NCBI GenBank assembly: GCA_001600635.1
Contig: BCKL01000037.1
Location: forward strand, 30,185 to 94,184
Direction: 5' to 3'
Source: Leucosporidium creatinivorum
Taxonomy: Eukaryota; Basidiomycota; Microbotryomycetes; Leucosporidiales; Leucosporidiaceae
DNA length: 64,000 bases
Part shown: one piece after another, positions 376 to 64,000 of the stretch
Layout of the letters: the number at the start of each line of letters is the position of its first letter
How positions within the stretch are numbered: position 1 is the stretch's first letter
Notes under the pieces: generated by a model
Databases searched by the model: none
What the model was told of the DNA's origin: nothing
What the model saw: the letters and a program-made list of their open reading frames with translations, nothing else
Translations under genes and position numbers: made by a program

Positions 376-3300
376 ATGGATTCGAAAGCCAAGTGGAAAC
401 GCTCCTTTGACCCTGTAGGACAACCTCCGCCTGCTCAGCCAACTTCCTACTCGCCTACAGCTTCAACCGCAGCGTCAGCGTCCGCCGTGCACCGGCCTCT
501 AGCTCTCCCGCAACAACAACAAGCTCGCTCAGCTTCACCAGCGCCGAGTGTAGCAGGACAGCATGCGCCGAGGCCTCGTGCTTGGCCAGTAGATCCTTCG
601 CCTGGAGTACAGCCCCGAGCGGCGAGTCGCGAGGCCAGCGCGGAGCTTGAGACGAGGGGTGGAGCAGATGCGACGAGCGAGGTGAGCGATGCAGGTGGAG
701 CGAGTGACGGACGCCAGCATCTAACGACTCTGTACCGCATCAGATGCCCGAGATGGACGTGGACCGCTGGCTCGAGGAAGCTTGTCGAGGGCCCGCCGGC
801 GTGAGGAGCAAGAGTGTCGTGTCGAGCTCGAGTACAGCTGCTGCAGAGGATATCAAGTCTTCTATCGACCTACAGGGAGCCGAGGCAAGTACTGGTCCTC
901 CAAGCTCAGCTAGACAGCAGCTCATCTTGCCCTGGACAGGCCGACCGAGCTGGTGGGGCGTTCAAATCGCGCCTTCCTCCTCATTGAACCCAGTCGGTGA
1001 GTCGACGCTCAGCTCTCCAGCTTGTAATAAGCTCACATTGGCTATGACGAAGCAGGTGAAGCCCAGCAAGACCTCTGCGCCCACTTTCAAGCCTCGACTT
1101 CCTCCTGCTGTTTCGCCATCGTCGGTCGCCGTGAGTTTGTTGCATGCTGTCATTTCTCTGAGCACATGCTGAGATTTCGCGTCGCTACGCAGACCTCTAT
1201 CCCTCCACCGGTGACAGCTATTCAGCCGCCGCCCCCAGCTTCGGCGCCCGTCATCGCCGAGCCGTCTCGGGCTGAGCTTCCTGCATGCCCTCGTCCCTCA
1301 AAACCAGTCGAGGTGCGCACTGCGCTTCAGAGTGCCTCCGGGGAGACGCTGACCTCTGTTTGGCATCTAGCTGCTTCCCAAGCCACCTCCCGCTCCATTG
1401 CCGGCGACGCTCCCTCAGTGCCCACTTCTACCTCGTCCGCCTGGAGTACGTCGCTCTCCACGCTTCGCATGAGCTCTTCTGACACCGGATTTTTGTCACA
1501 AAGCTGCCGGAGAAGCCCGTCTACGCCCCTCCAACGCCGCACCGTTCGCTCGGCGATCACTTGGGTCGCCCCGAGCCTGCGACGGCTCCTCACCCCGCTC
1601 CTCCTGCGCCATCGAGCACCTTCAACCAGGCAGCCAAGCTATCCCGGCTTTCAGCTATCCCACCCACCATCACGACCTCCGCCCCATCGCAAGTGCCGCC
1701 TACTCAAAGCTCAAGCGACATCCAGCCTCAGCCTGGAGCCCCGCCATCGCCATCTCTTCCTTCCCAAGTCGCTTCCTCACGCCCATTGGAGGGCAAGCAG
1801 GATCCACCACCTTCCAACTCGACACCGCCTCCGCTGTCGAAAACGGTGAGCTGACACTCTCCAAGCGCTTTGGATCTCGGCGCTGATCCTTTCCTCTGCA
1901 GGACCAAGCACTCGCTCTTCTCCCGCAACCCGGCGACGACTTCACCTCTCCCGAGCAGTTCTACGCCGCCTGCCTCAAGTCCACCATCAACGCCTTCGGA
2001 GTGCCGACATGGAAGAGCGACGACTCGACTGCGACCCTCCGCGCCGAGTGCTCGCTGAGGAAGAGCAGGATTGTCGCTTCTCCATCGCTGCAGTGCGCTC
2101 GGAGGGGAGATGGGTAGTGAGCAAGGAGAAGAGCAGACTCGAGCATAGTCATGTATGGGGCGAGCAGAAGATTGAAAGCGAGGTTGAGGATTCAGACGGT
2201 GAGCGAGCAGATTGTGGAGTCGGACAGAGACGGTTAACTGACACTCTGACGACTTTCAGACGACCTACCTCTCGTTCAACGACCTCCTCCAAAGCCTCAG
2301 CCACCTCGCAAAGCCCCTCCCAACTCGCTCTCCGTTGCGCCGAGCAAGACGACCTCCACCTCCTCCGCTCCACCCAAACCTTCGCTTCGCATCTTCCAGC
2401 CGGTCAACACGAGCAAGCCAGCTCCTCCGATGGTCAAGGTCGGCGATAGTTTCGACTCTCGCCTCGCCATCCACACCGTCGCTTCGAAGGCCGCCTACGC
2501 TCGAGGATTCGGCATCGTCGTCTCGGGTAGCCTGCACGGTCGCAACCTCCTCACCTTCTCCTGCCGTCGCGAAACGAGCAACAGTGGTCTCTCGGTGAAA
2601 GATCGCTGCCGCTTCAAGCTCCAGGTCGAGGTCAGCAAGATGAAGGACGGCTTGGAGGAGTGGAAGGTCGTCCACCTCGACGAGCCCCACAATCACGTGC
2701 CATCGACAAAGGACGACCTCGGCGAGTGGAAGGCGCCACACGGAGAGGAGCAAGTTCGTCGCTACTCTGGGCAGAGCTCAACGGTCGACTCGGACAGCAG
2801 CGATGGAGACGAAAGCTCGGACGACAGCTCCGGTTCGGTCGACGGCGAGAGCTCGGACGAGGGCGTTGTCGAGTTGAAGAGAGACGATTGTGGCGGAGAT
2901 GAAGGTGAGTAGTCAGCTCGTCGCCGACCTCATAAGCTGATTTTCTCGCCCCTCAGCCGACTCGACCAAGCCGAACATCAAGCGCAAGAGAAGCTCGAAC
3001 GCTTCTCCTTCGCCGAAACGCAGCTCCAGCTCGCCAGAAGATCTCCGCCTCCGCGTTCTCCACCCTCTCAGCTCGTCGCAGCCCGCTCCCTCGCTCCCTC
3101 GTGTCGGCAACGTCTTCTCCTCCCGCCTCGCTCTCCATACCGCCGCCTACAAGGCCGGCTACGCTCGGGGGTTCAACGTCGTCGTCTTCCAGTCGCTGCA
3201 AGAAAACGGTCGGATGCAATTTGCGTGCACCAAAAGCGCCAAGGCCGGAGGGATGCCGAGTCACGAGTACTGCCCTTTCAGGATTCGCACGAAGGCGACG

Positions 3301-4010
3301 CTCGACAAGAAGGGCGGAGAGCGATGGGAGGTGGAGGCGACTCAGTTGCAGCATAATCATGGAGCCGGAACGAGGGAGGAGATGAGGAGCTGGAGAGGGC
3401 CGCGAAAGGCGAGCACGAGGACTTTGAGGGCGACGAAGCGAGGAAGTAAAGGTAGGGCGGAGGGATCCGGCGACGACGAGGAGACAGAAGAGGAGAGCGT
3501 GGAGGAGAATGATCCCACTCGCCCCAACGTCAAGCCGGAGCGTTTCAATTCGATCTCGTCGGCCCCACCTCGCAAGAAGCAACGAGGCGCCTCCTCCCTT
3601 CCCTCTCCTCGACTCTCCCGCACCCCTCCAGCCACCTCTCGTCCCGCTCACTCCACGAGCCAGCCCAACCCCGCCTTCCTCCCCTCCCTTACCTCCTTCC
3701 TTACCGCCCTCTCTCCCTCACTCGGCCAATTCGCTCCCATCCTCCTGGCTGTCGGCGTCGACTCGGTCGAAGCGATCGTCGAGTTGGCTCTTCTTGAGGA
3801 GGCCGAGCTCGAGGCGTTCATCAAGATGGATCGGAGGGGCGGCTCGGAGGGGGAGGGAGCTCGCAGCTTGATGGAGCTGCCGCCGTTGGAGCGGGCCAAG
3901 TTGAAGAGTAGCTTGAAGAAGGCGAGGGCGGCGACTGGATCGACGCAAGCGCCGCAGTTTGTTCAGTGATGTAGTCAGCTATACCTCGATGCAAGACCTG
4001 CTCGAAACGT
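320..4010 (+). repeat. Left arm of inverted gene duplication A/C
   Basis: This arm matches 20830-24095 in opposite orientation. Identity is high in the 5' leader, the first exons and the 3' end including about 60 bases past the stop, and much lower over the zinc domains. The copies enclose KHA1, MAGOH, gene B, the MYND gene, the DUF3429 gene and PET100. Boundaries were judged by eye. Confidence 0.75.
376..3969 (+). CDS. Family member A: three FAR1-like zinc domains plus SAM-like C-terminus
   Basis: Multi-exon gene of a locally expanded family; a DNA-binding role is inferred from the domain type. The N-terminus (begins MDSKAKWKRSFDPVG) is Pro/Ser/Gln-rich and disordered. Three FAR1/WRKY-GCM1-type domains follow, at about 1905-2180, 2430-2700 and 3090-3390, each with a leading GDxF/GNVF helix, paired cysteines, a W-V strand and a closing HxH (LEHSH, EPHNH, LQHNH). 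Between them are acidic Ser/Asp-rich linkers. The C-terminus (about 3660-3930) has the family FLPSLTSFLTALSPSL helix and ends in a basic ELPPLERAKLKSSLKKARAA segment. Compared with gene C, domain 1 carries a one-base deletion near 2060 after ECSLRK, so the copy is either a pseudogene or contains a sequencing error. It has one zinc domain more than C. Exon joins in 800-1860 are tentative. Confidence 0.62.
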
Positions 4011-4409
4011 GCGATTGTCCCTTTGCACCTGAACTCCATGAGAGCTGAGCTCCCCGGGCGCGACAATTTGCCGAGCATCCCGAGCCAGGTCTCAAGTCTA
4101 CTCTCTCTCCGCGAGTCTCCAGGAGATCTTCAAGCTCTCGTAGCGGGCTTACTGAAAGACTGATGGCATTACGAGGCTTGCAGCGTTCGGCGACTAATGC
4201 GCACGACGGGCTAAGCTCGACCGAGGTACTGATGAAGGTCGTCGATGATAGAGAAGGTCGTGAAGGTCGTTAAGAGTGGGAAAAAAATCGATAGAAAACG
4301 TAGAGAGTATAACAAAGCAGCTGCGAAAGAGAGAGGTCAGCTCGGTGCTCCTCCTTCGACGAGAGAACACGACTCACCGAGACCCAAAACCGATGAGAGC
4401 ATCCCTCGC
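3970..4409. other. Convergent intergenic, A and KHA1
   Basis: This region lies between two 3' ends facing each other. The first ~45 bases match the sequence downstream of gene C. The rest shows no coding exon or RNA gene that I can recognise. There is an A-rich patch around 4270-4330. Confidence 0.5.
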
Positions 4410-13095: not shown

Positions 13096-14983
13096 TTAAA
13101 TCGTTTTCCTCGCTTTCCTCGGTCTCTCCGCCTCTTCCTCCACCGTCCAGCCCCTCTCCCTCGCCTCCGCCACCCCAATAACAATCCTCGACCTCTCCAA
13201 CACGCCCACCCCCGCATCTTTGAGCATCCTATCCCTGCTTTCATCGTCTAGCACGAGGAAACGGACCAGGAGAGGGAGGTCGGTGATCCCTGCGTCGTGA
13301 AGCAGAGGGCTGAGAGAGGTGAGGTGCGGGGAGAGGGAGGTGAGGAGGGAGGCGAGCTGGAGGGGGAAGGGTGCGGTGGAGGGTGAGGGGATGGGAGCGG
13401 CGGAGGGAGCGCGGGAGGGGAGGGGCTCGGCGGTCAGAGAGGCTGACGAGTCGGAGGAGGAGGAGCCTGGAGAGTCGGATGAGGCGCTGCTATCGCTACT
13501 GAAACTGCTGGTACTGAGCGTTGAGCTTGACTGTGCAAGTGAAGGGCGGGCGAGAGGAGGTGGGGCAAGAGGGAACCCTCGATGGCGGTCCTCGGTGATG
13601 GTGGCTACGAAGGTGTTCTCCTCCTCCGATGACCATCCGCTGCTGTCGCTACTGCAGCTACTAGAGCTCAGGGCAGAGTTGGAGCTTTTGAGGCCGGAGA
13701 AGACGGACGAGGAGAGTTGAAAGATTGGGAGCTGAGGCCTCGGCGGAGGTGGAGGGCGAAGGGAAGGGTCATAGATCATGGCGAGCTGTAGAGTCGTCGA
13801 GTCAGCCCCGATATAAATGATCTCGCGTGCACCAGCGGCCAATTTCGAAACAAAGCGGCCTCGGCGGTTACTCACCTCCTTCAGCTCGGCCTGCTCGTCA
13901 TAGGGCTTGCCTCCCTGAGCGAGCGGTCTCCAGGTCGGATCTTCTACTACCCGTCGATCCGGTCCATGCCTGTGTTCCCAGCAGCTCGACCTCCCAACCC
14001 TCCACTGGCCACCCCCAGCCGGTTCACACACCACCCGAAACGGGCATGAGCTCCCCCAGGCGGATGATGACCGGGCGGCGTGGTTGCAAAAGAGCTTGTG
14101 GAAGCGTCCTGAAGCGGTCNTNCGGAGGGAGATGCCGATTTGGGGGACTATGGTGGTACGGAGGGTGAAGAGGAGGGCGTTGACGGAAGGGAAGAGGGCG
14201 CCTGGTTGAGGGAGAGAAGGGATTACCTAACAATAGGGGACATTGAGCATGCCAACTGACATGGAAGGAGAGGAAGATGCCCTACAGGACAGGAGCCTGG
14301 AAACGCAGCGCGGTACGCCTCAAGGCTGCGCTGCAGAGAGAGGCACGTCAGCTTCGGCGCTCGGCGCTACCCTCAGGCCTCAGCTCAGGGAAATCGGACT
14401 TACATGCTGCCCCTAGCCTATCCCATGAGCTCCCTCAGTCAAGTCACTGCTACTCTCCCAGTCTCCATGCCGGTGTACAGCGCACCACGCCTCCTTAGTA
14501 ACGATCCAAGTTGCGCTGACACGGTCGTAGCTGGCGGCGCATCGTACGGGGCAAGACTTGAGCTCGCACTCGGCGACGAGCTTGTCCCGAGAGTCCTCAG
14601 CGCGCTTCATGTGGTAGGCCGAGTAGTGCACGCTGGAGCGGTTGCAGTCGAGGAAGAAGGCGTGCGCCGAGAGGAATCGCTCCCCGATTAAGGGGAACTG
14701 CCAGGAGTGGAGCCGTGTCGGCGGGGGAGTACTTTTGAGGAATTTGTACCGCTGTGCAGTACTGGCATCAGCAATGCGGGAGAGAGCAAGGCTCTGTCTC
14801 ACTTACCGGCGCCGAACTGGCCTTCTGCGCTCCTTCGGCGCTGCTCTGGAGAGGCTCAAGTCGATCGCCATTCTTCTCCTTTAGTGCGAGTGCAGGTCGA
14901 TCCGGGAAGGGTCTCTTGACTATTCCCGACGCTTTAGGGTCGGGCTGGCGATTCTCTGAGCCGTTGTAAGCTTGTTGATCCAT
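13096..14983 (-). CDS. Family member B: two FAR1-like domains, HGPDRR motif, SAM-like C-terminus
   Basis: The start is the ATG at 14983 (MDQQAYNGSENRQ). A 55-nt intron joins SSAP to RYKFLKSTPPP. Zinc domain 1 (about 14690-14460) runs GERFLSAHAFF ... CELKSCPVRCAA ... ATWIVTKEAWCAVHRHGD. After an intron comes the family linker EAYRAAFPGSCPV, then domain 2 (about 14190-13960) with GALFPSVNALLFTLR, GISLR, LFCNHAA, SSCPFRVVCEP, GQWRV and EHRHGPDRRVVEDPTWRP. A Ser-rich region follows (about 13740-13420), and the SAM-like end (about 13350-13130) includes LASLLTSLSPHLTSLSPLL and GITDLPLLVRFLVLDDESRDRML. Two N calls fall inside domain 2 near 14120. A nucleic-acid-binding role is inferred from the domain family; no target can be named. 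Confidence 0.68.
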
Positions 14984-20829: not shown

Positions 20830-23800
20830 AAACCGAACATTGCACGTATTGAGCAAACCTCGGCATCGAAACATAGCTAACTACATCACCGAACGAGCTA
20901 CGACGCCTGCCTCGATCCAATCGCCGCCCTCGCCTTCTTCAGGCTACTCTTCAATTTGGCCCTCTCCAACGGCGGCAGCTCCATCAAACTTCGAGCTCCC
21001 TCTCCCTTCGGGCGGCCCGTCCGATCCTTCTTGATGAAGCCCTCAAGCTCGAGCTCCTCGAGCAGAGCCAACTCGAGGATCGCTTCGACCGAGTCGACGC
21101 CGAGAGCGAGGAGGATGGGAGCGAATTGGCCGAGCGAGGGAAAGAGCGCGGTGAGGAAGGAGGTAAGCGAGGCGAGGAAGGTAGAGTCGGCCTGAGGATC
21201 AGGAGGTAGTGGACGTGTTGGAGGTGTTCTGGAGGGGCGAGGCGTGGGAAGGAAGGAGGAGGTTCGGCGTTTCGAGTACGGCGAACGGGTGGAGGAGGAG
21301 GCGTTGAGGGCGTCGCTGCTGCTTCTGCTCAAGGTGCGTTGGCGCTTCCTCTTCAGCTCCACTAGCGCATCGGGCTCTGAGCTCTCATCGCTCGACTCGC
21401 CCTGCTCCCTTCCCTCGGCTCTCCTCCTGCGACCAGGGCGATGGACGTGGGGCTTCTGCGGAGCCTTCCAAGGCCCCATCTCTTCCTTCGACATTGGACC
21501 ATGGTTGTGTCTCGTCTCTACGTGAGTGACCTTCCACTCCTCCGAGCCGTTCCTCCTCGGTGTGACCTCGACCTCGATGCGAAAGGGGCAGCGTGTCGCC
21601 CGAGCCGCGGTTCTCTTGCCGAGCTGGCAGGTGAAGGAGAACCGACCTTCCTTGAGAGTGGTGTAGACCAGAACTCGGAAGCCGCGATCGTAGGCGGCCT
21701 TTGACGCCGTGACGTGAAGGTCGGAGCGCGAGGAAAAGACGTCGCCGACTTGTGGGGGAGGGCGTGCTGAGGTCGAGGGGTCGAGTGGCGGGAGAGTATG
21801 GAGGCTTGTCTTTGCCGCCGGGAGAGGGGTAGGAGAGGGCGGTTGGGAGAGCTGCTGACGCTTGCCGGCCGCCGACTTGCTCCTCTCGGCGAGAGGCTTG
21901 TCGTCTGCGAAGCAGCAGGGTCAGCTCTACGAGCGATGCGGCGATCCGCGGATGTACACACCGTCCGAGCTCGTATCGAAGCTCCTCCTCTTCATTCTCG
22001 GAAGCAACATCACATCGCTGGAGCTCTCGTCGGAGTCCGAGCTGGCCGCCGAGGGGTCTGACCATTGCTCTCGAGGCTTCAGAGGAGCGCCGGTGAGAGT
22101 CGTAGCGTCTGCGAATGTGCTTGGTGAGTCTCCGAGATTCTGGAACCAGGCGAGGCGATGACTTACCCTCCTGATCCTCGGCATCGCTCTTGGAGATGGC
22201 TTGCTTTGTCCACGGGTGGTTGTGCTCCAGCCTGCTCGCCTCGGCGCTTACGACCCACTTGCCCTTCGACCTCACGGCGGCAATCGAGAAGCGGCAGCTT
22301 TCCTTCTTCCGCAGGGAGCACTCGGCGCGGAGAGTCGACTCGGAGTCGGTGTTCTTCCACATCGAGAGCCCGAACGCGTTGAGGTGGGCTTTGTAGCAGG
22401 CGTTGTGGAAAGCGGCAAAGGAGCTGAACGACTGTCCATCTCGTGGGAGAAGCGCGAGAGCCTTGTCGAGAGCCTTCTTCTGCACGCGCGGAGGTTAGCA
22501 TTGCGAGCCTAAGTCGTCAGCGAAAGTAAGGGCGCACGTTGAGCGTAACTGAGCTCGACATGGATGCTGCTGCTGATCCTTCCTGGCTCAGTGATCCGGA
22601 TGGAGGGATCGAGGGAAGCAGCGAGAGCGACGGCGCAGGTTGCGGTTGAGGCGGAGGCCGGACGACGAGGGAGGCTGACGTTGCAGACTTCCCCTGGAAT
22701 GCTGAGCCTGTGTCGGTGGATTTGCCCATGCAAGAAGGATCAATGCCGTCCGAGGATGGTTTGACGCTTGCGGTAGCGAGGGGCTGGCGAGGAGAAGCAG
22801 TCGGGACCTTCAAGTTCGGGCAAGGTGAGCAATCGCCGTGCGAGGGTGATATCCTCGAAGGGGCCGATGTGGGCTTCTTCGGGAGCTGTAGGTAGCAAGA
22901 AACGGTTAGATGTGATCTGTGGAAGCTCGAAGAGTCACCTACACCAAGAGGACGGGAAGGAAGAGGGTGTTGAGGGCGTTGAGGGAGCGCTCTTGGCGCT
23001 GTAGCGGGAGGTGGCTTGGCGAGGATCTACAGATTCTACAGAGGTCAGCGTCTGGTCGGAAACACTCCAGAGCTCAGAGCGTACCTCGACCGGCTTGGAG
23101 GGACGAGGGCACGTGGGAAGCTCGGCTCGAGACGGCTCGGCGATGACGGGCGCCGCTGCTGGGGGCGGCGGCTGGATAGCTGTGACCGGTGGAGCGGTAG
23201 AAGTCTGCGTAGCAGAAGAACTCTCAGCATCTATCCGGACAGAGCGAAAGCGTGCAACAGACTCACTGCGACCAACGATGGCGCAACAGCAGGAGGAAGT
23301 CGAGGCTTGAAAGTGGGAGCTGAGGTCTTGCTGGGCTCCATCTGCTTCGTCATAGCCAATGTGAGCTTATTACAAGCTGGAGAGATGACCGTCGACTCAC
23401 CGACTGGGTTGCATGAGGAGGAAGGCGCGGCTTGAACGGTGTTCGCGCTCGGTCGGCCTGTCCAGGGCAAGATGAGCTGCTGTCTAGCTGAGCTTGGAGG
23501 ACCAGTACTTGCCTCGGCTCCCTGTAGGTCGATAGAAGGCTTGACGTCCTCTGCAGCAGCTGTACTCGAGCTCGACACGACACTCTTGCTCCTCACGCCG
23601 GCGGGCCCTCGACAAGCTTCCTCGAGCCAAGCCAGCGGTCAACGTCCATGTCGGGCATCTGATGCGGTACAGAGTCGTTAGGTGCTGGCGTTCGTCATTC
23701 GCTCCACCTGCATCGCTCACCTCGCTCGTCGCATCTGCTCCACCCCTCGTCTCAAGCTCCGCGCTGGCTCGCGACTCGCCGCTCGGGGCTGTACTCCAGG

Positions 23801-49500: not shown

Positions 49501-49702
49501 CAAGAGCAACGCCGTGGCGCACTTTGAAGGCGTCGAACCGTGTGCGATCTGCTATTCCTCGATTTCCGTCGTGGACCGCTCCCTCGCCAACAAGACCTGC
49601 AAGGTGTGCAGCAACGCCTTCCACGCATCCTGCGTTTATACATGGTTTCAAAAATCGGGCGGCGCGACTTGTCCCCTGTGCAGATCACTTTGGAGCTCGT
49701 AA
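43576..49702 (+). CDS. LTN1: Listerin E3 ubiquitin ligase (ribosome quality control)
   Basis: Large RING ligase that ubiquitinates nascent chains stalled on 60S subunits, with Rqc2. The N-terminus is MAKSKSSASSSTRKKHEKKA, basic as in listerins, then FAPKVKTYTPPPRPPKG. A long helical (HEAT-type) body covers about 44105-48680, with an acidic insert EDEDSEDEDDEDS near 44980-45030. The C-terminal part carries the RWD-like region (LAQVEVKDVRKVGVTDKQWR, WLLAVQQVI) and ends in the listerin RING: CAICYSSI, NKTCKVCSNAFHASCVYTWF, TCPLCRSLWSS then TAA. About eleven introns join in frame; the total of roughly 1,800 residues agrees with the family. The last eleven codons and about 250 bp of 3' flank are duplicated at 60745-60997. 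Confidence 0.93.
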
Positions 49703-49925
49703 AACGGTTTAGATGTGGGAAAAAGCGATTTCCAAGCCTTTCTGTAGGTCAGCAGAGAGCCGCAAGCTACTGGGAGACTCCTGAGATATCTATCTACAAG
49801 TCTGGCGCATCGGTTAATCGTCAAAGTCTACTGTCAGTGAAGAATCGGCCCCCTCGGCGCTCTCTCGTCCTCTCGGCGGAACAGTCTTTGCTGACGACAT
49901 GGGCTCTTCCCATGACCTTCGCCCG
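49667..49925 (+). repeat. Source copy of duplicated LTN1 3' end
   Basis: The last codons of LTN1 (TCPLCRSLWSS, stop) and downstream sequence match the reverse complement of 60745-60997 with scattered substitutions. The match begins abruptly within the RING and fades after about 49925. Confidence 0.85.
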
Positions 49926-50534
49926 CTCGCGCACGCTTTCAGGAACTTGTTTAACACTGGTGCGGGCCGTCGACCGCTCAGGCGAAGACTAGCTATCACT
50001 GTCGATGACGGGAGCTTCGGCGATTCGGCCCACTTCGAAACCTCTGCTGCTGGAGGATCTCAGATGGCTGCGGTGGAGAGCAGCTCCGGAGGTCGGAGGT
50101 GGGACCCTTTTTAACCGTTTCAGTAAGAGAATGACACGGTAGATCGCTCTCTGCTTGCCTGCCGTCGTCTAGCTTCGACAGCCGGGCTCGGCGAAGCCCA
50201 TTCTGCGCCCAGGCGCAAGGAGATATGCAGCAGAGAGGGCTGCGAGGGTATTCAGACGTTTTGGTACCATCAGAGGTCAGCTACAGCTTCCTAATCGTCT
50301 CGGCCCTAGTCTCGAATTGCTCGAACCCTCCTCGCTCGCCGACGAAACTCGAAGGAGAGCAGAGGCGAGCAGCTTGCCTCTCGCCACATTCCTCGCTTGC
50401 TCGCTTTCGACTCGTTACTCAACAAGGAAGCAGCTCGACCAGCTACTGGACTACAGGACCGCTTACCCGCCTGCCCGACTCCGGCGTCCACCGCTTGACC
50501 CTCCGCTCACGAGCTCATCGCCTCGTCTCGAGAT
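49926..50534. other. Spacer between LTN1 and gene I
   Basis: No gene is recognised. A CT-rich leader-like stretch with TACAG words precedes the ATG at 50535 (about 50280-50530). Confidence 0.4.
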
Positions 50535-52541
50535 GCAGGACAGCGACGTCGAGCACCTTCAGACGACGGCGAGGGAGGAGCACAAAGCTATCATCGGAGA
50601 TCTGGATCGAGAGCATGGCCACTCGAACAAGGTGCAGAGCGCCGGCTGCTCTAAGAGTGCCGAGGAGGAAGGACGCGCGAGGACGTTGGTCGAAGGAAGC
50701 GAAGCTGGTGGATCGAGCTCTGAGAGGACGGAATCTGCTGGAGCTATGAGTGCTATTAGTGAGCAAGCCCAGCTGCTCGGAGCAGAGGTCTCCCGCGGCG
50801 AGGAGGACAGCTCGGAGGTGAGTTCAAACCGAGGAGGGCGATGCAGCGCTGCAGGCGGCTCGGCGCTTACTGACTGTACCTATCGTGCTCTTTAACAGCT
50901 CAGCAGCGTGGCCGGGGACGACGAGCTCCCCCCTCCCTCCTCCTCGGCCGACACTCCTTCGCACTCCTTCCCCTCGCCCGGCGACGTCTTCCGCACTAAA
51001 GCCTCCTTCTTCAGCGCCTGTCTACCGCCTCGAGACACCTACGAGTACCCCTTCTATAAGCTCACCAACAACAAGCGAACAATCGCGGTTGCCTGCCGAG
51101 CACGTCAAACGCTCGGTTGTCCTTGGAGGGTAACAGCGGCGCTGGGGGACGACGGCTGGGTAGTAGCGAGTGATGGATCGTTCTTCGAGCACAGGCATGT
51201 CGCGAGAAGGCTGTCAAGCTAGCTGGAAACCGAGGACCGGAAAGCGGAGGTGAGCACCAAGTTTCGGGCGCTCGCACGGTTCTCGGCGATGATCGCTGAT
51301 CTCTGCCAACCCACAGCAGCACCCCAACCAACGTCAATGAGGGCTGCGCTCCCTACAGTGAGACAATCTGACGGCTCTTGTATATCAAGCTACAGTACCT
51401 TCGCTGAGCCTTCCCGGCCGCTTGCAGGAACGCCGAGATGAGCTTGACGCGCTACAGATCATGCAGGACAAGATTGACTTCCCTGGGGAAATTCCTGTAC
51501 GCTCATATTCTCCTCGGCGCATTCTAAGCTCACCTCGAACTCCACAGCCCATCCTCGGCTTCCCCAAGGTCGGCGACCACTTCCCCTCGTTCGAGGCCGC
51601 CTACTACACCCTCCGCAACCTCAGTATCCCGCTAACGGGCGTCGGTATCAGCCCCTTAGGGTGTTCGAGGGTCGCTCGCTGCAACCGCAACCGCACCAGC
51701 TACAGCGCGGCGCGTCGATGCAACTTCAAGATCAAGTTCGCCCTCGATGCCGAGGGGGAGGGCTGTACTGTTTCGGCGGATAGCGGCTTCTCTCATAACC
51801 ACGGAAGGGATAGGAGAATCATTGAAGACCCTCATTGGAGGCCTCGCACGAAGGCAGGAGGCACCTACAACCAAGCCGAGGAGTTCCGCAAAGTGAGCCA
51901 TGCTCGGTCGGGTTGCGATAGCTCCCGTCGTTGACACTCTCCATACCATAGCGACAGGAGCTCATGGGTGGTTCGAGAACCCCCTTTATCAGCACAACGG
52001 CTCTCCCTCGCCCTCCTTCGGGCAACAAAGCGCCGACCTCTTCGCCGTCCCCTCCGCCAGAGCCCAGCCTTAAGCGACCCTCCTCCAACCCAGACCCCTC
52101 GAGCAAGAAGAAACGTCGCATGTCTACCTCGACTCATCTCGAAACCCCTCCTGTCGCAGTGGGATTCTCCAGCTCTTCCGCTCGGCCTTCGACCGCCCGC
52201 TCGAGCTCAACCTTCTCGGCGGCTCCTACCTCTCAGCGCCGTAAGGCTTCCCCCACCGCCACCGCCTTCGCCTGGAGGCTTTCTCACAGCACATCCTCCA
52301 CCCCTTCCCTCGCCAGCTCGCCCTCTTCCTCGCCTCACTCCATCCTTCCCTTGAATCAACCTCGGCGACCCTCTTCGAAGCTGGCGTCACGGACCTTTCG
52401 CTCCTCTTCGCTTTCATCGCGATGGTCGAGCAGAGTCGGGACAAGTTTTTGAGCGAGGTCAAGCTGCCGCTGCTGCATAAGCATCTGCTGAAGAAGGAGT
52501 TGAGGAACGCCGAGCCGAGCTGGAGGGTGGAGATTAGCTGA
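50535..52541 (+). CDS. Family member I: two zinc domains, HGRDRRIIEDP motif, SAM-like C-terminus
   Basis: The start is MQDSDVEHLQTTAREEHKA at 50535. Zinc domain 1 (about 50960-51220) reads SPGDVFRTKASFFSACLPP ... AVACRARQTLGCPWRVTAAL ... GWVVASDGSFFEHRHVARR; an in-frame TAG follows shortly (LSS then stop), before a charged exon end LETEDRKAE. Domain 2 (about 51555-51890) starts with the linker DKIDFPGEIP, then KVGDHFPSFEAAYYTLRN, VARCNRN, RRCNFKIKFALD, SHNHGRDRRIIEDPHWRPR and YNQAEEFRK. A basic linker (SSKKKRRMSTS) precedes the SAM-like end FLASLHPSLESTSATLFEAG ... LPLLHKHLLKKELRNAE. The last joins are uncertain: the linker and the SAM-like end lie in different frames. Decay or draft error is possible. 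Confidence 0.6.
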
Positions 52542-52897
52542 GGAGGATGCGATCGTGGAGGTCGGTCAGGCGAGCGCTGCTCGACTGTGAGAGATAAATT
52601 GTGAAACGATAGCTTGACTCTGTACAGCTCGATGGTGCAGCGGGAGAGAGAAACTGAGTAGGAGCAGCTCCGAAGAGGAGCGAATGGAGTACAAAACAGC
52701 CAAGCGAGGTTGGACCATGGTCTGCTACAGCTGACGACTCTTCTGTAGGGGAGCTTCGGCCAGATGCAAAGACGCCGTTGACCCTGACTGGCCTGGCGGC
52801 GATTCGGGATCTTCGCTCTTGCCTTCCGCCAGATCTGCTCGCTTTTAACGCTTCTCTCGCTGTTTCGTAAAGCAGGAAAGCATACAGCACTACTCGA
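52542..52897. other. Spacer between genes I and J
   Basis: This contains the 3' flank of I and the 5' leader of J. TACAG/CTGTAG words occur at about 52620-52750. No RNA gene or exon is recognised. Confidence 0.4.
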
Positions 52898-55012
52898 ATG
52901 GGATCTACAACCATCGCCCCTACGACCAACGACCCTCTGAACTTCTCGCTCTCGCCTCCCCACTCGCCATCTCATCCCGCTCCCGTCGTCGCTTCGAGCT
53001 CGCCGACTCCGCCTCGGGAAGCTCCAAAGACCTACAATCAGATTCTGGAGGATTCAGAAGCTACTCCGGATGCTCAAACAGCTCTGCAGGGCATCGAGCT
53101 GGACGCTGAGCCCGACTTGCGCCCGAGTGCGGAGGTTGAACCAGTCGAAGGCTTATCGCGAGAGGAAGCAGAGTCGCCCGAGGTCAAAGAGGAGGAGGCT
53201 ACCTTTCCCAAAGCTCGATTGACGCCCATCATCGAGATTTCGCACGACGAGCAGAGTGACGAAGAGCAGGAGGGCTCGGCCGAGGTGAGCAGCTGTTGTG
53301 CGCGCCGAGCGAACTACCGCTGACCTTTTCCTCTTACAAAAGCTCGAAGTAACGCCTATTGTATCGACAACCAAGTCTCGCGCATCGGCTCCCACCGACT
53401 CCACCGCGCTGCTTCCTTCGCCCGGCGACAGCTTCCCCTCCTCGGCGGCCTTCTTTGAGGCCTGTCGCGCAGGTGCTCGCGCTGCGTATGGCAGTACTGC
53501 CTCAAAGTATACGGAGCGCGAGGACTATTTCGCTGTATGCTGCTCGCGTCGAACAGCTCATGTCTGCAAGTTCCGGATCGCCGCCCGCCCGAACGCCGAC
53601 GGCATGTGGGTGGTCACCAGCAGTCCTTACAGACTCGATCATGATCACGGCTTCCTGGAACCTATTGGAGCTCGACGGAAGAGGAGGGTACAGCGACGGA
53701 CCTCTTCGCGCGAGCTAGAGCAAGGTTAGCCTTCTTCTTCGCCTCTGCTCAGGCGAGGTCTTGCGCTGACGTGTGCTCCCATCAACAGATGATACGGAAG
53801 ACAGCGAGAGCGACTCTGAAATCTCGAATGACAAAAAGACTTTGTCACACTCGGAGCAAGAGGTGAGTCGACGTTATTCGACTCGGCTGAACGAAGCTCA
53901 TCCGATCTCTCTCCAGTATCGCCTCGCCTTCCCTGGTCGTATACCAGTGGGTCTNACACCCAACTCCATACTCTACCATATTCGTGCTGACCACGCTTTC
54001 CTGTAGCATCTCACTGGCCTCCCTTCCATCGGCGACCGCTTCGATANCGTCGAACTGCTCCTCCTTCGCCTCAGGCTTGCCATCGTACCGGTCGTGGGCG
54101 TCAACATCTGCAAGCTCGTCCTGGAGGATTGTGTACGCCTTCGCTGTCAGCACGCTACGTCGGCCTCGCCCTGGAAGCGCTGGTCCTGTACATTCGTTGA
54201 CATCGCCGAGCGCGCTGGCGACGGATGGCGAGTCGCTGCAGGTAGCAACTTCGAGCACTCGCATGGCCGCGACCGAAAAATCATACTGGACCCGAAGTGG
54301 AGACCTCGCATTGGAGCACGGTTCTACTATAGCGAGTCGAAGGATCGGAAGAGGGTCAGTCTTTGCACGCCGAAGATATGAAGCGCGATGGCTGACTTGG
54401 CTGTCTCTTTAGCTACAAGAGCTCGAGGCAGAGGCTCAATCTAGCAAGTCAAAGCCTCGCACATCTCGTACCTCAGCCAGAGCTCGCTCCTCGCTCCCTT
54501 CGCCTCCTCCTCGTCGCCTGCGATCCAGCTCCGAGCGCCCCTCCATCGCCAGCTCCTCGTCTTCATCCCGCAAGCACCCCAGCACCCTCAAGAAACCTTT
54601 GCTCACCATCGATTTACCTCGACCGCCCCCTTCTCGCTCTGCCTCCCTCAAGCGTGCGCCTTCAGCTCCCCTCCCCTCGACCTCGGCTCCCGTCTTCAAG
54701 CGGGCCAGAGTCTCAGCTCCTCCTCCCCAGCTCGCCACCCCTCCTCCTTCCCCATCATCCTTCTTTCCGACCCTCAAGACCTTTCTCACCTCCCTTCATC
54801 CTTCCCTTGTCGCCTCGGCACCCTTCCTCGACCTCGGCGGCATCAGAGATCGGTCCTTGCTGGTCGCGTTCCTCGTGTTGGAGGAGAGGACGCTGGAACG
54901 GCTACTGGTGGATATGGAGGTGCCGTTGCTGCAGCGTCATCTGTTGAAAGCGGGAGTGAGGAGATTGCTGAGGGGAGACGGAGGTTCGGCGATGGCTGCA
55001 GGGGGCGCGTAG
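52898..55012 (+). CDS. Family member J: complete two-domain form
   Basis: One of the best-preserved members, with exons joining in frame. The start is MGSTTIAPTTNDPLNFSLSP, followed by an acidic N-terminal region. Zinc domain 1 (about 53420-53670) reads SPGDSFPSSAAFFEACRAGA ... AVCCSRRTAHVCKFRIAARP ... GMWVVTSSPYRLDHDHGF. After acidic exons comes the linker YRLAFPGRIP, a phase-0 intron, then domain 2 (about 54007-54360): LPSIGDRFD, LRCQHATSASPWKRWSCTF, GWRVAAGSNFEHSHGRDRKI, ILDPKWRPR. A Ser/Arg/Pro-rich basic region (about 54420-54760) precedes the SAM-like C-terminus FFPTLKTFLTSLHPSLVASA, IRDRSLLVAFLVLEERTLER, VPLLQRHLLKAGVRRLL. Two N calls lie at about 53955 and 54047. Its 3' third is duplicated in inverted orientation at 63386-64000 (gene M). 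Confidence 0.7.
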
Positions 55013-55435
55013 GGCTGAGGTCGAAGGTGAGGATAGTACGATAGTGTAGAGCTGTTATCGTGGCATATATCCGTGGATCAGTGTCGACTGCAGGCCGGCT
55101 GAGCGACTTCAAGAGCTCCGCGCAGGCAGGTGGGCACCTCGCGCCGAGCAGGCTCTTGTGTGCAGGCAAGCAAGACGTCGAGGGCGGAAAGAGACTTTCG
55201 AGTATCTCGGAAAGCGAGTTGTAGCTCTCTCGAGCTCTTTCACCATATTCCGCTCTTCTCGAGAACAGCGAGGTTCGGCTCGCTCGCAGGTTGCCCTCTC
55301 CCACAATCCTTCGTCGTCTTCTCGTCTCTCCGCCTCCGCCAGAGCAGCACATATTGGATTATAGCTCTCACCCGCTGTTCCAGGTCCCCCAGCTCTACCT
55401 CAGTGTCGACCCGCCCCTCAAAAGCTACGACTGGA
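55013..55435. promoter_or_regulatory. Duplicated spacer upstream of gene K
   Basis: This spacer is nearly the same as 62963-63385 on the opposite strand. Conservation extends through the 3' flank of J and the leader of K, so K and L probably share their promoter sequence. No RNA gene is recognised. Confidence 0.55.
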
Positions 55436-57382
55436 ATGGAGCTCGAAGCTCGCTCGCCCGTCGTGGTCGAATCGGCTCTGCTACAGCAGGAGGAGGAGCC
55501 CAAACCGAATATCGAGTCGCTGCTCCCTCACCGTACGCTCGCAGAAACAACGCCGAGCTTCGAAAGCGCCGGCGTCGAAGACAGCGTCGTTGCTGAGGGA
55601 CCCGTCGAGGCGCGAGCTGCTGTCAAGGCTGAAGCGGAAGAAGTCGAGGAGGAAGATACAGATACCGAGATGATTGTCGTTCCTGCTCGGCGAACCGCTG
55701 CCATCGTCTTGTCCGAGACTGAGGAGGAGGAGGAGCGCTTGTCTCGCTGTAGCCTCGGAGCTTCGCTGACGCGCTTATGCCTCTACAGAACGTTGCGGAG
55801 CTTCCCTCTGCCACCGCGAAGCCGGCCCCAACCGCCAACACAATCGGACTCCCCCTCCCCGGCGCTCGCTTCGCAACCAAAGACGACTTCATCGAAGTAT
55901 GCCAAGCCGCTTCCGTAGCCAGCACCGGCTTCACCATGTACAAGTGCTACAACGACTCCGCGTACATCCTGCTCACTTGCAGCCATCGCTTGTCGGCGGA
56001 CAAGTGCCGCGCTCGATGTGCTGCTCGGCGCTCGGCAGACGGTGATTGGACCGTTCACGACCGGTCCTACGTCCTTGAGCACACCCATGCAGAGTCTGCT
56101 ACGATCATCAAACAGCGACCTCGCTCCTCGACCGACAGCGAGCTCTCGGACTCTCCATGTGAGCTTGTTTCTGAGCCCGAGCTATCTCGCTGAGCTGACG
56201 CACCTCGTTACACAGCGACCGACGAACGAAGTGACGAGGAAAGCGAGGAAGAAACTCCAACTCTCCGCCAGACGTCCAAGGTATACCCGTCGCTGTTCAG
56301 GGAGTGAGAGCCGAGCTAATCTTGACCCTTCGCAGGCCGACTTCGCCGCTTACCAAGCCGCCTTCCCTGGAGTTTGCCCTGTGAGTCGTGCTCGCAGCTT
56401 GAAAAAGTAACTGACGAGCGTAGCTTACATCCATCATCTGCAGGTCATCCCTCGCCTCCCTCAACCCGGCGACTCCTTCCCCCGCCCCGAGGCCGTCCTC
56501 TTGGCCGCGCGCAGCAAGATGGTGCCCATCACTGGAACGTCCCTCCGGAAAGAACAAAGCTCTCGGACTCGCGCCAGGATCTCCTGCCATCATACCGCGC
56601 CGAGGAACCCGTGGCAATCGACTTCGACCTGCGCTTTCGCCATCATCTGCGTTCGGCACGACGATGGGCGATGGACGGTAGACAGAGAGAGCTGCTACCA
56701 GCATGCTCATGGAAGAGATAGGCGTATCGTGCAAGATTCATCTTGGCGGCCAGCCATCTCCGGGAGTCGGCAATACAACGAGAAGGAGGAACGGAAGAAG
56801 GTGAGTGCTTTCGTACTCCTCTCCCCGACACACCGCTGACAAGATTCCATCATCTACAGCTTCAACAGCTTCTCGCGCAGGCAAGAGCCTCTCCGGCCTC
56901 GTCGTCATCTCGGCGCGCAAAGTTTCGAGTCAAGCCTTCCCCTCCGCCCCCTTCCAAGCGACCGAGATCGTCCCTCGGCCCTGGCACTCCACCTCCGTCC
57001 TCCCACCCTCAGCGCGAGTCCAAACCAAATCTCCCTTCTTACCCAAGACCACGCCACTCCCTCCCTGCCCGTCTCCCCTCGACCTCGGTCGGTTCCCGTA
57101 TCCCGCTCGCCAGCTCCCCCTACCTCCGCTCCCTCACCCTCCCTCTACCTCCCAGCTCTCACCACGTTCCTCACCTCCATCCATCCCTCCCTCTCTCTTT
57201 CAGCACAACTCCTCTATGAAGGAGGGCTCAAAGACCCCTCCCTCCTCCTCGCCTTTCTCGCCCTCGAGGACTCAACCAGGGAAGCTTTCTTGCTCGAAGC
57301 GAACGTCGCACTACTGCAGAGGCATCTGCTCAAAGCCAAGATTGGGAAGGCTAGGGAAGGAGGGTGGCTTACGAGCAGTTGA
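55436..57382 (+). CDS. Family member K: paralogue of L, frame-slipped near the C-terminus
   Basis: The start MELEARSPVVVESALLQQEE and the first ~95 residues nearly equal gene L. Zinc domain 1 (about 55850-56100) reads LPGARFATKDDFIEVCQAAS ... LLTCSHRLSADKCRARCAAR ... DWTVHDRSYVLEHTHAES, and differs strongly from L. The linker YQAAFPGVCP and domain 2 (about 56445-56770) follow: QPGDSFPRPEAVLLAARS, ITGTSLRKE, SCHHTAPRNPWQSTSTCAFA, GRWTVDRESCYQHAHGRDRR, IVQDSSWRP. After a basic Pro-rich linker the frame slips by one base near 57095. The remaining frame carries ALTTFLTSIHPSLSLSAQLL and LLLAFLALEDSTREAFLLEA of the SAM-like end. This copy may be decayed, or the draft may hold an extra base. Confidence 0.64.
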
Positions 57383-60744: not shown

Positions 60745-60997
60745 AAGGTCATGCGCAGAGCCCATGTGGTCAGCGAAGACTGTTCCGCCGAGAGGTCCAG
60801 AGAGCGCCGAGGGGGCCGATTCTTCACTGAGAGTAGACTTTGACGATTGACCGATGCGCCAGACTTGTTGATAGATATTTCAGAAGTCTCTCAGTAGCTT
60901 GCGGCTCTCTGCTGACCTACAGAAAGGCTTAGAAATCGCTTTTTCCCACATCTGAACCGTTTTACGAGCTCCAAAGTGATCTACAGAGCGGACAAGT
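60745..60997 (-). pseudogene. Inverted copy of the LTN1 3' end
   Basis: On the minus strand this stretch reads TCPLCRSLWSS and a TAA stop at 60962-60964, then about 215 bp matching the LTN1 3' flank (49667-49925). The rest of the RING and the whole body of LTN1 are missing, so it is only a tail fragment. It lies just downstream of gene L in the same orientation. Confidence 0.85.
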
Positions 60998-61152: not shown

Positions 61153-62962
61153 TCAAGCAGCAGTCCCCCACTCTCCTTCCCTCGCCTGCTTGATCTTCGC
61201 CTTGAGAAGATGCTTCTGTAGCAATGGCATATTCGCGTCCGCCAAAAACGATTCCCTCGTCGAGTCCTCCAAGGCGAGAAAAGCGACGAGAAGGGCGTGA
61301 TCTCTGACTCCTGCGTCGTCGAGAATAGATGCTGACGTGGAGAGGGAAGGATGAAGGGAGGCGAGGAAGGTGGTGAGAGTTGGGAGGAAGGGAGATGGTG
61401 CAGGAGTAGGAAGGGGAGGAGCTGGCGAGCGGGAGAGGACCGATGAGGGAAGGCGCGCGGGGAGGGAGTGGCGAGGTTTTGCGTGGGCAGAGAGCTTCGG
61501 TTTCGACTCTTGTTTAGGCTGAGAGGAATCCCGGAGAGTGTCGAAGGCGAGGGAGAGCCTCGGTCGTTTGGAGATGGGTGCAAGGCTTGACTTGGTCGAA
61601 GGGCGAGACGCCGAGGGAAGCTGAGAGCTCGCCAATTCAATGTTGCGGAGCTGTAGAGCGGGGAGGACGGTCAGTGAGACCTGCAAGTCAAGAGAACGCC
61701 CTACTCACCTCCTTGAGATCTTCCGTCTCATCGTAGCGCTTAGTCCTACTGATAGCAGGCCTCCAAGACGGATCGTTGATGATCCGCGCATCTCGTCCAT
61801 GGTCATGCTCGTAGCAGCTCTTCGACTCCACCTTCCATCTTCCATCTCCCTGTTCGGCGCAAACGATGGCGAAAGCGCAGCTGGAAACCTGCTTCCAGGG
61901 AGAGTTGGCGGCAGTGTGGTGGCAGATGAACTTGTAGCGGATGTAGCTACTGCGCTCTTTCCGAAGAGAAGTGCCGGTGATGGGCACCATCGCGGAGCGG
62001 GCGGCGAAGAGGACGGCGTCGAGGCTGGGGAAGGCGTCGCCGGGTTGAGGAAGATCGGGGATTGGCTGTGGGTGGGGAGAGAAATCAGCCGTGGTTTGTG
62101 AGCAGTAGTAGAGCTAGGACGAACAGGACAGACACCGGGAAAAGCGACTCGGTAGGCAGCGAGGTCCGCCTGAGAGACGGCAAGATCAGCTCGGCTCTTA
62201 TTGTCAGGCGGCCAACTCAGAGCCTCACCTTCTTCGGTGGGCTGCCAGCTGTCAGCGGCTTTTTGACTCGCCGCAAGCGATCGAGGTGCTCTCCAGAGTG
62301 GTTGTGCTCCAGTATGTAGGGCTCCCGCTGGACGACCCAATCGCCCTCGTCCGAGCGCCGAATAGCGCAGCGAGCTCGGCATCCGTACAATGTCCTGCTG
62401 CTGCACGTTGAGAGCGCATACTTGGGATGATTGAGACATCGCCCCATGCCGTAGCCAGTGGTAGGGAGGGAGCCTGCGCGACAGGCGGCGAAGAAGTCGT
62501 CGGAGGTTGCGAAATGGTCGCCAGGGGAGGGGAAGCCGGCGATGGTGGAGGTTGTGGGTTGCTGGCGAGGGGATGAGCTGCACTCCGATTCGTGCTATAC
62601 AATCATCTCACCGTCAGCGAGGGGATGAGGCTACATTCGGACGAGCTCACCTCTTCCTCCTCCGCCTCCTCCTCTTCATCTTCGGACAAGACGATGGCAG
62701 CGGTCCGCCGAGCAGGAACGACAATCATCTCGGTATATGTATCTTCCTCCTCGACTTCTTCCGCTTCAGCCTTGACAGCAGCTCGCGCCTCGACGGGTCC
62801 CTCAGCAACGACGCTGTCCTCGACGCCGGCGCTTTCGAAGCTCGGCGGTGTTTCTGCGAGCGTACGGTGAGGGAGCAGCGACTCGATTTTCGGTTTGAGC
62901 TCCTCCTCCTCCTGTAGCAGAGCCGATTCGACCACGACGGGCGAGCGAGCTTCGAGCTCCAT
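61153..62962 (-). CDS. Family member L: intact two-domain form, partner of K
   Basis: All exons join in frame, so this is the best type sequence for the subgroup. The start is MELEARSPVVVESALLQEEE with an acidic leader, then an intron to HESECSSSPRQQP. Zinc domain 1 (about 62550-62270) reads SPGDHFATSDDFFAACRAGS ... TCSSRTLYGCRARCAIRRSD ... DWVVQREPYILEHNHSGEH. The linker ADLAAYRVAFPGVCP, an intron, and domain 2 (about 62065-61720) follow: LPQPGDAFPSLDAVLFAARS, ITGTSLRKE, FICHHTAANSPWKQVSSCAF, GRWKVESKSCYEHDHGRDAR, IINDPSWRP. After a basic linker (ISKRPRLS) the SAM-like end reads FLPTLTTFLASLHPSLSTSA, VRDHALLVAFLALEDSTRES, MPLLQKHLLKAKIKQARE. A nuclear DNA-binding role is inferred only from the fold. 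Confidence 0.72.
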
Positions 62963-63385
62963 TTCCAGTCGTAGCTTTTGAGGGCCGGGTCGACACTGGG
63001 GTAGAGCTGCGGGACCTGGAAAAACCTTTGAGAGCTGTAGTCGAGTATACGCTGCTCTGGCGGGGGCGGAGAGACGAAAAAAGGACGAAGGATTGTGGGA
63101 GAGGGCAGCCTGCGAGCGAGCCGAACCTCGCTGTTCGTGAGAAGGGCGGAAGATGGTGCGAGAGCTCGAGAGAGCTACAGCTTGGGCCCGAGATACTCAA
63201 AAGTCTCTTTCCGCCCTCGACGTCTTGCTTGCCGGCACACAAGAGCCTGCTCGGCGCGAGCTGCCCAGCTGCCTTCGCGGAGCTCTTGAAGTCGCTCAGC
63301 CGGCCTGCAGTCGACACTGGTCCACGGATAAATGCCCCAATAACAGCTCTACACTATCGTACTATCCTCACCTTCGACCTCAGCC
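62963..63385. promoter_or_regulatory. Duplicated spacer upstream of gene L
   Basis: Reverse-complement counterpart of 55013-55435, with few differences. It holds the leader of L and the 3' flank of M. No RNA gene is recognised. Confidence 0.55.
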
Positions 63386-64000
63386 TTACACGCCCCCTGC
63401 AGCCATCGCCGAACCTCCGTCTCCCCTCAGCAATCTCCTCACTCCCGCCTTCAACAGATGACGCTGCAGCAACGGCACCTCTATATCCACCAGTAGCCGT
63501 TCCAGCGTCCTCTCCTCCAACACGAGGAACGCGACCAGCAATGACCGATCTCTGATACCGCCGAGGTCGAGGAACGGCGCCGAAGCGCTAAGAGAAGGGT
63601 GGAGGGAGGTGAGGAAGGTTTTGATGGTAGGAAAGAAGGATGATGGGGACGGAGGAGGGGTGGCGAGCTGAGGAGGAGGAGCCGAGGGTTTGGTCCGCTT
63701 GAAGACGTGCGCCGAGGTCGAGGGGAGGGGAGCTGAAGGCGCACGCTTGAGGGAGGCAGAGCGAGAAGGGGGCGGTCGAGGTAGATCGATGGTGAAAGGG
63801 GGTTTCTTGAGGGTGCTGAGATGCTTGGGGGATGAAGACGAAGAGCTGGCGATGGAGGGGCGCTCGGAGCTGGATCGCAGGCGACGAGGACGAGGCGAAG
63901 GGAGCGAGGAGCGAGCTCTGGCTGAGGTACGAGATGTACGAGGCTTTGACTTGATGGATCGAGCCTCTGCCTCGAGCTCTTGTAGCTAAAGAGACAAGCA
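63386..64000 (-). CDS. Family member M, 3' part only (inverted copy of J)
   Basis: The gene enters from beyond the window end. The visible part begins in the last coding exon, just after an intron 3' site (TCTCTTTAG), and reads LQELEARSIKSKPRTSRTS, a Ser/Arg-rich basic region, then the SAM-like end FFPTIKTFLTSLHPSLSASA, IRDRSLLVAFLVLEERTLER, VPLLQRHLLKAGVRRLL and a TAA stop at 63386. By eye it is about nine-tenths the same as J. The zinc domains, if present, are outside the window. Confidence 0.7.

What the first reader, a model, noticed from the sequence alone, without database searches (positions are those of the whole stretch)
376..64000. Dense local expansion of an undescribed-looking FAR1/WRKY-GCM1 zinc plus SAM-like family
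Thirteen copies in 64 kb share tandem C..C..W..HxH zinc-type domains and a helical C-terminus around FLPTLxxFLTSLHPSL and LLxxFLxLEExxLExxL. I saw no MULE transposase, no terminal inverted repeats and no retroelement parts. FAR1-type domains are known from transposon-derived regulators, so this looks like a domesticated, lineage-expanded set of putative DNA-binding proteins, with the SAM-like end perhaps serving for self-association. The two-module architecture is not one I know by name.
Basis: partly seen in the sequence, partly recalled or inferred. Interest (0 to 1): 0.8.

Follow-up and report, generated by a model that had tools for sequence, protein, structure and literature searches.

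The report
Fungal cluster of DNA-binding-SAM genes
A fungal chromosome region packed with related genes, each pairing iron-regulator-like zinc modules with a sticky SAM-like end, looks like a home-grown, locally multiplied set of gene regulators rather than a mobile element.

Summary

In the 27.7-Mb genome, all matches at E<0.001 lie on this 218.7-kb contig or the end of contig C1, which overlaps it, plus one zinc-only gene on C2. I count about 29 loci. No MULE transposase match exists, and none of 16 reverse-transcriptase matches lies there. Self-match blocks are mostly inverted (25 of 34). dN/dS is below 1 in 29 of 30 segment pairs. One relative is an automatically named FAR1-domain protein of Leucosporidium creatinivorum. 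Best reading: oligomerising DNA-binding regulators, a new architecture from known folds. DNA binding and function are inferred; transposon domestication is unproven.

The parts
1932..3969 (+). Gene A: zinc 1932-2152 (frame broken inside the module), zinc 2442-2696, zinc 3106-3363, SAM 3676-3930
   Evidence: HMM hits; open frame to 3969
13096..14685 (-). Gene C: zinc 14464-14685, zinc 13963-14202, SAM 13147-13371
   Evidence: HMM hits
20898..22494 (-). Gene B: zinc 22216-22437, zinc 21498-21746, SAM 20925-21179; the rough model adds 5' exons up to 23353
   Evidence: HMM hits; gene model
24342..25904 (-). Gene D: zinc 25725-25904, zinc 25045-25260, divergent SAM-like end 24351-24572
   Evidence: HMM hits, (SAM end E=9e-12)
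26758..28141 (+). Gene E: zinc 26758-26907, zinc 27347-27553, SAM 27887-28117
   Evidence: HMM hits
29217..31713 (+). Gene F: zinc 29217-29447, zinc 30939-31097 (last His replaced by Tyr), SAM 31438-31662; a run of N lies between the zinc modules
   Evidence: HMM hits; alignment
32738..33652 (+). Gene G: SAM 33410-33628, with a degenerate zinc-like stretch 32792-32899 seen by eye (E=0.44, not significant)
   Evidence: single-exon model
39258..40786 (+). Gene H: marginal zinc 39258-39392 (E=0.0074), zinc 39907-40170, SAM 40499-40732
   Evidence: HMM hits
50533..52541 (+). Gene I: zinc 50980-51198, zinc 51572-51805, SAM 52302-52523
   Evidence: HMM hits; rough gene model
52898..55012 (+). Gene J: zinc 53424-53651, zinc 54031-54267, SAM 54758-54967
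   Evidence: HMM hits; gene model
55436..57382 (+). Gene K: acidic N-terminal exon 55436-55735, zinc 55861-56091, zinc 56468-56713, SAM 57149-57367
   Evidence: HMM hits; exon 93% identical to gene L's
61153..62962 (-). Gene L: acidic N-terminal exon, zinc 62298-62522, zinc 61796-62041, SAM 61168-61392
   Evidence: HMM hits; 515-aa model, used
63422..64000 (-). Gene M (3' end): SAM 63431-63640; its zinc modules lie beyond the window at C37:94318-94551 and 94934-95158
52509..55733 (+). Arm of a 3.2-kb inverted duplication (91% identity) holding gene J; the partner arm (C37:96066-92849) begins in the window at 62665 and holds gene M
   Evidence: self-BLAST
297..1423 (+). Arm of an inverted duplication on the 5' side of gene A (90% identity with 24104-22974, on the 5' side of gene B)
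60745..60997 (-). 253-bp inverted copy (93%) of the 3' end of LTN1 (49667-49919), downstream of gene L: a piece of a neighbouring gene carried along with a duplication

Best explanation
The window is part of a roughly 240-kb chromosomal cluster, in a fungus probably close to Leucosporidium, of about 29 related loci. Each intact gene encodes a protein, probably nuclear, with two (sometimes three) Aft2/WRKY-type zinc modules, an unstructured basic linker and a C-terminal SAM domain. Most likely mechanism: the tandem zinc modules read a bipartite DNA site (inferred from fold). The SAM end joins copies of the same or sister proteins head to tail, building cooperative or combinatorial regulatory complexes on DNA, as TEL/ETV6 or Polycomb SAM proteins do (inferred). 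The cluster grew by local, mostly inverted duplication with patchy exchange between copies, while the zinc modules diverged in sequence (shown: duplications, patchy divergence, divergence; inferred: exchange as the cause, and changed DNA specificity).
Confidence: 0.6

Rival explanations
1. The genes are a defence-like chromatin layer: diversifying zinc modules recognise transposon or foreign DNA, and SAM polymerisation spreads a silent state, a fungal counterpart of KRAB zinc-finger proteins.
For: Single-locus expansion with many divergent paralogs and patchy divergence between copies; the nearest SAM folds include Scm and Ph, Polycomb-type polymers. Retroelements exist elsewhere in the genome (16 RVT_1 matches).
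Against: No link between any member and a transposon sequence was tested; dN/dS gives no general sign of positive selection (29 of 30 pairs below 1); the presumed recognition strand is no more variable than the neighbouring strand; no known silencing-recruitment domain was found; a SIM-like stretch was seen by eye in genes K and L, but the regex count over 20 models is weak (11 overlapping matches against 4.5 expected).
Confidence: 0.18
2. The zinc modules bind protein or RNA rather than DNA, and the proteins are scaffolds or adaptors.
For: Zinc modules of this kind can have other roles (recalled); the linkers are long and look disordered; DNA contact residues were not tested.
Against: The closest solved match is a DNA complex (4lmg) covering the whole module; NLS-like motifs in 13 of 16 tested.
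Confidence: 0.12
3. The copies are non-autonomous or decayed mobile elements derived from a FAR1-bearing MULE.
For: FAR1 domains occur in some MULEs, including a group with fungal hosts (PMC6446971, passages).
Against: All matches at E<0.001 sit in one region of a 27.7-Mb genome, plus one gene on C2; no MULE match anywhere in six frames; most copies model as multi-exon genes and show dN/dS below 1; duplication blocks run up to 7.2 kb and one carries a fragment of LTN1.
Confidence: 0.05
4. They are iron-regulator (Aft1/Aft2) orthologs amplified for metal homeostasis.
For: Aft2 is the nearest solved relative; Pfam AFT gave weak hits in 3 of 21 modules.
Against: About 20% identity to Aft2; two modules plus a SAM, unlike Aft (recalled); FAR1 scores as well as AFT (best 0.0033 against 0.0032). 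A GATA-type repressor is the iron regulator in most fungi according to PMC4161868 (passage).
Confidence: 0.03

Closest known systems
Aft1/Aft2 DNA-binding domain (WRKY-GCM1 superfamily; PDB 4lmg)
   Different: About 20% identity; Aft has one such domain and no SAM (recalled); here two or three modules in tandem, a SAM end and about 29 local loci
FAR1/FHY3 (FRS/FRF) family and FAR1-bearing MULEs
   Same: Pfam FAR1 cut-off is passed by one of four family proteins (29.2 against 28.1 bits) and weakly approached by others
   Different: No MULE transposase found in the genome; single-region genes; SAM C-terminus. SWIM parts were not specifically searched for
DNA-binding proteins with polymerising SAM/PNT ends (TEL/ETV6; Ph and Scm)
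   Same: DNA-binding-type part plus SAM fold; SAM model nearest Tric1 and Scm in Foldseek; acidic/basic faces in 19 of 22
   Different: DNA-binding module is of another fold; polymerisation untested; no match to Pfam SAM models
Leucosporidium creatinivorum BCR35DRAFT_341705 ('FAR1 domain-containing')
   Same: Same zinc-SAM order; best match in this genome 57% identity (C1:1848084-1848959)
   Different: Automatic annotation only; no study found; copy number in that species not determined
KRAB zinc-finger gene clusters (by analogy only, recalled)
   Same: Local, single-region expansion of multi-module zinc proteins
   Different: Different zinc fold, no KRAB, no proof of diversifying selection or transposon targets

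Membership tests
WRKY-GCM1 zinc superfamily | Two Cys and two His zinc ligands (C-C-H-H) in order | tested here: met
   Invariant in the 32 complete modules aligned. In the wider window set of 21 the last His is replaced by Tyr in one (gene F, second module)
WRKY-GCM1 zinc superfamily | Four-stranded antiparallel sheet fold | tested here: met
WRKY-GCM1 zinc superfamily | Sequence similarity to a member family | tested here: met
   Aft2 E=1.1e-5 by profile; FAR1 over gathering score in one full-length member; single modules only weak
WRKY-GCM1 zinc superfamily | Sequence-specific DNA binding | not testable with these tools
   Needs an assay
FAR1/FHY3-type transposase-derived factors | FAR1 domain over curated cut-off | tested here: inconclusive
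   1 of 4 family proteins passes (29.2 bits), the others 13.0, 18.5 and 23.7; genome scan: 1 of 8 hits over the cut-off
FAR1/FHY3-type transposase-derived factors | MULE transposase core (PF10551) | tested here: not met
   0 matches in the genome at E<=1, six frames without regard to introns
Mobile element (MULE) | Dispersed copies | tested here: not met
   Matches at E<0.001 confined to C37 and the C1 end plus one C2 gene; weaker hits elsewhere were not examined
Mobile element (MULE) | Terminal inverted repeats and target-site duplications | tested here: inconclusive
   Inverted repeats found are long duplications; no dedicated search around each copy was run
Aft1/Aft2 iron regulators | Aft-type DNA-binding domain | tested here: inconclusive
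   Best PDB match, but about 20% identity and Pfam AFT only at E=0.0032 or worse in 3 of 21
Aft1/Aft2 iron regulators | Iron-sensing Cys-Asp-Cys motif (recalled) | not tested
   No scan was run for it
SAM domain | Five-helix SAM fold | tested here: met
SAM domain | Sequence match to a SAM profile | tested here: not met
   0 of 13 members hit a Pfam SAM family at E<=1
SAM domain | Self-association through mid-loop and end-helix faces | not testable with these tools
   Only a charge pattern: helices 3-4 acidic and helix 5 basic in 19 of 22

The most novel reading that the evidence does not exclude
A fungal lineage has evolved its own single-locus arsenal of diverging, polymer-forming DNA binders: tandem WRKY-GCM1 modules with changing specificity, joined by interchangeable SAM ends into mixed filaments. 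It would be a functional counterpart of KRAB zinc-finger clusters, used against transposons or other foreign DNA.
Probability: 0.12. Interest if true: 0.85.

Novelty: new variant of a known kind. Interest (0 to 1): 0.55.

Why it matters
Fungal transcription-factor expansions are usually described for Zn2Cys6 and C2H2 families (recalled). Here a fungus probably related to Leucosporidium holds about 29 loci of an Aft2/WRKY-type zinc family in one chromosomal region, in an unusual zinc-zinc-SAM order. If these are oligomerising DNA binders, the cluster is a compact natural experiment in how paralogous regulators diversify by inverted duplication and sequence exchange. It would also extend polymer-forming SAM regulators, best known from animals, to another DNA-binding fold.

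Tried and rejected
Mobile-element reading: rejected on genome-wide distribution, lack of MULE and dN/dS. Mating-type reading: the 5 STE3 matches all lie on C25, not here (homeodomain genes not tested). SUMO-interaction motif as a family trait: genes K and L have an attractive stretch by eye, but over 20 gene models the regex gave 11 overlapping matches against 4.5 expected, and of the two it matched only L, so I do not claim it. Recognition-strand diversification: I first read strand b1 and its hairpin as the most variable core element; on rechecking, strand b2 without its invariant Cys is equally variable (3.21 against 3.18 bits), so I withdrew that argument and lowered the novel case from 0.15 to 0.12 and the defence rival from 0.20 to 0.18. 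Positive selection: not supported; the only pair above 1 (s1/s2 first module, 1.44) rests on 6 changes, and 9 of the 30 pairs have dS above 1.3, where the ratio is rough. SAM relationship by sequence: no Pfam hit, and the PDB sequence search gave only incoherent weak hits. Relatives by protein search: 2 metagenome proteins matching the SAM end of the gene-A type, one L. creatinivorum protein and no further paralog with that protein as query; only the 7987 candidates sharing most words were scored, so absence elsewhere is not shown. Pfam scan of further C37 open frames: I gave 82 of the 118 of 200 aa or more outside the window (zinc-SAM frames and many antisense ones left out); the answer showed 25 of 33 matching families, none transposon-like, the other 8 were not displayed. 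Literature: seven searches, seen as listings (the pair Leucosporidium plus FAR1 gave 0 papers), and passages of PMC4469406, PMC2937223, PMC12093110, PMC9713403, PMC4161868, PMC9252788 and PMC6446971 brought no description of this architecture.
Full report
WHAT IS THERE. The window is G000:C37:30185-94184 of a 27.7-Mb assembly in 63 contigs, about 60% GC, with genes that model mostly with several exons (rough models of my own). Iterated HMMs over all six frames find 13 SAM-like domains and 23 zinc-domain hits at E<1e-3 (22 physical modules; gene A's first module is hit in two frames). They assemble into 13 genes, A to M, on both strands. The usual order is zinc, zinc, linker, SAM; gene A has three zinc modules. 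Gene G has no significant zinc module, gene H's first module is marginal, gene F has a run of N between its modules and a Tyr in place of the last His of its second module, and gene M runs off the window, with its zinc modules recovered on the contig.

WHERE THE FAMILY LIVES. Protein and family searches of the whole genome put every match at E<0.001 on C37 or in the last 27 kb of C1, plus one zinc-only gene at C2:627 kb. With a SAM end alone as query, 23 of 23 (gene L) and 18 of 19 (t1) matches at E<=10 lie there; the odd one is C3:1417222 (E 0.086, one stop). Full-length queries gave further weak hits on other contigs (E 0.0014 or worse), which I did not examine; one, at C24:239555 (E 0.018, two stops), covers the SAM part of its query, so a decayed relative elsewhere is not excluded. 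The last 3,531 bases of C1 are identical to the reverse complement of a stretch near the far end of C37, so the two contigs probably dovetail into one region of about 240 kb; much of the C1 side could not be fetched. Counting loci with zinc and/or SAM parts gives 26 on C37 and 3 more on C1. These are lower bounds by the tool's own warning. Two C37 loci show a SAM only. PF10551 (MULE) has no match in the genome. None of 16 RVT_1 matches is on C37 or near the C1 end. The STE3 pheromone receptor is on C25.

HOW IT GREW. Self-comparison of C37 gives 34 blocks, 25 inverted; not all involve this family. The largest are 7.2 kb (91%) and 3.2 kb (91%, genes J and M). Another block carries the last codons and downstream sequence of LTN1 (49667-49919) next to gene L at 60745-60997, the mark of segmental duplication rather than transposition. 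Synonymous divergence differs within gene pairs: K/L N-terminal exon dS 0.06 against 0.80-1.36 for the zinc and SAM parts; A/B SAM 0.28 against 2.0 for A's third and B's second zinc; t1/C1 gene SAM 0.29 against zinc 0.98; but J/M (zinc 0.04, SAM 0.25) and D/n1 (zinc 0.84, SAM 1.40) run the other way. This suggests sequence exchange between copies, though comparison of non-orthologous modules could contribute. dN/dS is below 1 in 29 of 30 segment pairs (pairs overlap, and 9 have dS above 1.3), so the proteins appear maintained; there is no general sign of positive selection. First and later zinc modules form separate lineages (2 label changes on the tree against a shuffled mean of 8.9, minimum 5 of 300; 28 of 32 modules labelled), although the deep branches have weak support. 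The tandem arrangement is older than the expansion.

HOW IT MOST LIKELY WORKS. Shown: fold of the zinc module (model), zinc ligands, tandem order, a SAM-like end, nuclear-type basic motifs upstream of the SAM in 13 of 16 tested models against 3.9 expected (4 of 20 models not tested), opposite charges on helices 3-4 and helix 5 in 19 of 22 SAM ends. Inferred: tandem zinc modules bind a two-part DNA site; the SAM ends join paralogs; the cluster provides a set of combinable regulators. The b1-b2 region, which carries WRKYGQK in WRKY factors (recalled), is only slightly more variable (3.2 bits, without the b2 Cys) than helix 1, b3, b4 and the Cys-Cys loop (2.6-3.0). That is compatible with changed DNA specificity but is no argument for it.

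WHO HAS IT. The only named relative found is BCR35DRAFT_341705 of Leucosporidium creatinivorum, labelled a FAR1-domain protein. Its best match here is 57% identical, so the window's genome is probably a different, related species. The reported size of L. creatinivorum, about 28 Mb, fits that kinship (PMC12093110, passages). Two metagenome proteins match the SAM end of the gene-A type (64% and 72%). In the Microbotryum genome paper, Pfam FAR1 counts were 0 in Microbotryum, Sporobolomyces roseus and R. glutinis, 1 in Mixia, 14 in Melampsora and 4 in Puccinia (PMC4469406, Table 3 passage); 3 of the 4 family proteins scored here fall under that family's cut-off too, so standard annotation would see little of this family. 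Babu et al. 2006 on WRKY-GCM1 and transposons was not held; I know it from recall and from reference lists.

VERDICT. A real, well-delimited gene cluster; known folds in an unusual combination and a striking single-region expansion; host gene duplication rather than mobile elements; function inferred only.

Noticed in passing
window 41.6-43.0 kb; C37:143.9-144.8, 163.5-164.3, 172.6-173.4, 184.4-185.2 kb: A second unnamed gene family (BTB-like by eye, no Pfam hit over cut-off) sits next to zinc-SAM genes H and t1 and is duplicated together with them; unlike the zinc-SAM family it is also expanded on C5, C13 and C24.
   Followed up: partly
window 1932-2152: The first zinc module of gene A continues in another reading frame halfway through, while the same module in gene B and in C37:216125-216343 is open; a broken module or a sequencing error.
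   Followed up: no
window 55436-55735 and 62663-62962: Genes K and L share a 93% identical acidic N-terminal exon with a hydrophobic stretch followed by an acidic run, resembling a SUMO-interaction motif; not shown to be a family trait.
   Followed up: partly
C37:155741-162913 and 181120-173934: A 7.2-kb inverted duplication at 91% holds an enlarged family member (s1/s2) whose gene model has an extra helical-looking stretch between its zinc modules without any Pfam match over cut-off.
   Followed up: partly
C1:1862949-1866479 and C37:213814-217344: Contig ends are identical in reverse orientation over 3,531 bases, so the assembly probably failed to join C1 and C37.
   Followed up: yes
window 43.5-49.7 kb: An LTN1 (listerin) gene with its C-terminal RING lies inside the cluster; a 253-bp copy of its 3' end lies at 60745-60997.
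   Followed up: yes
window 29801-29852 and 29908-29959: A 52-base stretch is repeated at 98% close to a run of N, which may be an assembly artefact inside gene F.
   Followed up: no
C37:119605-123327: A 1241-aa open frame with a marginal zinc-module hit (E=0.015) and no Pfam domain over cut-off; possibly an unexpanded relative.
   Followed up: partly
P0003 residues 441-502; C37:174315-174488 and 71318-71459: Residues annotated beyond the SAM end of the L. creatinivorum protein match sequence downstream of zinc-SAM gene H and at a second C37 place, so the same downstream neighbourhood may be conserved in that species.
   Followed up: no
C24:239555-239905 and C3:1417222-1417470: Weak SAM-region hits outside the cluster (E 0.018 and 0.086, with stops inside), perhaps decayed or distant relatives.
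   Followed up: no
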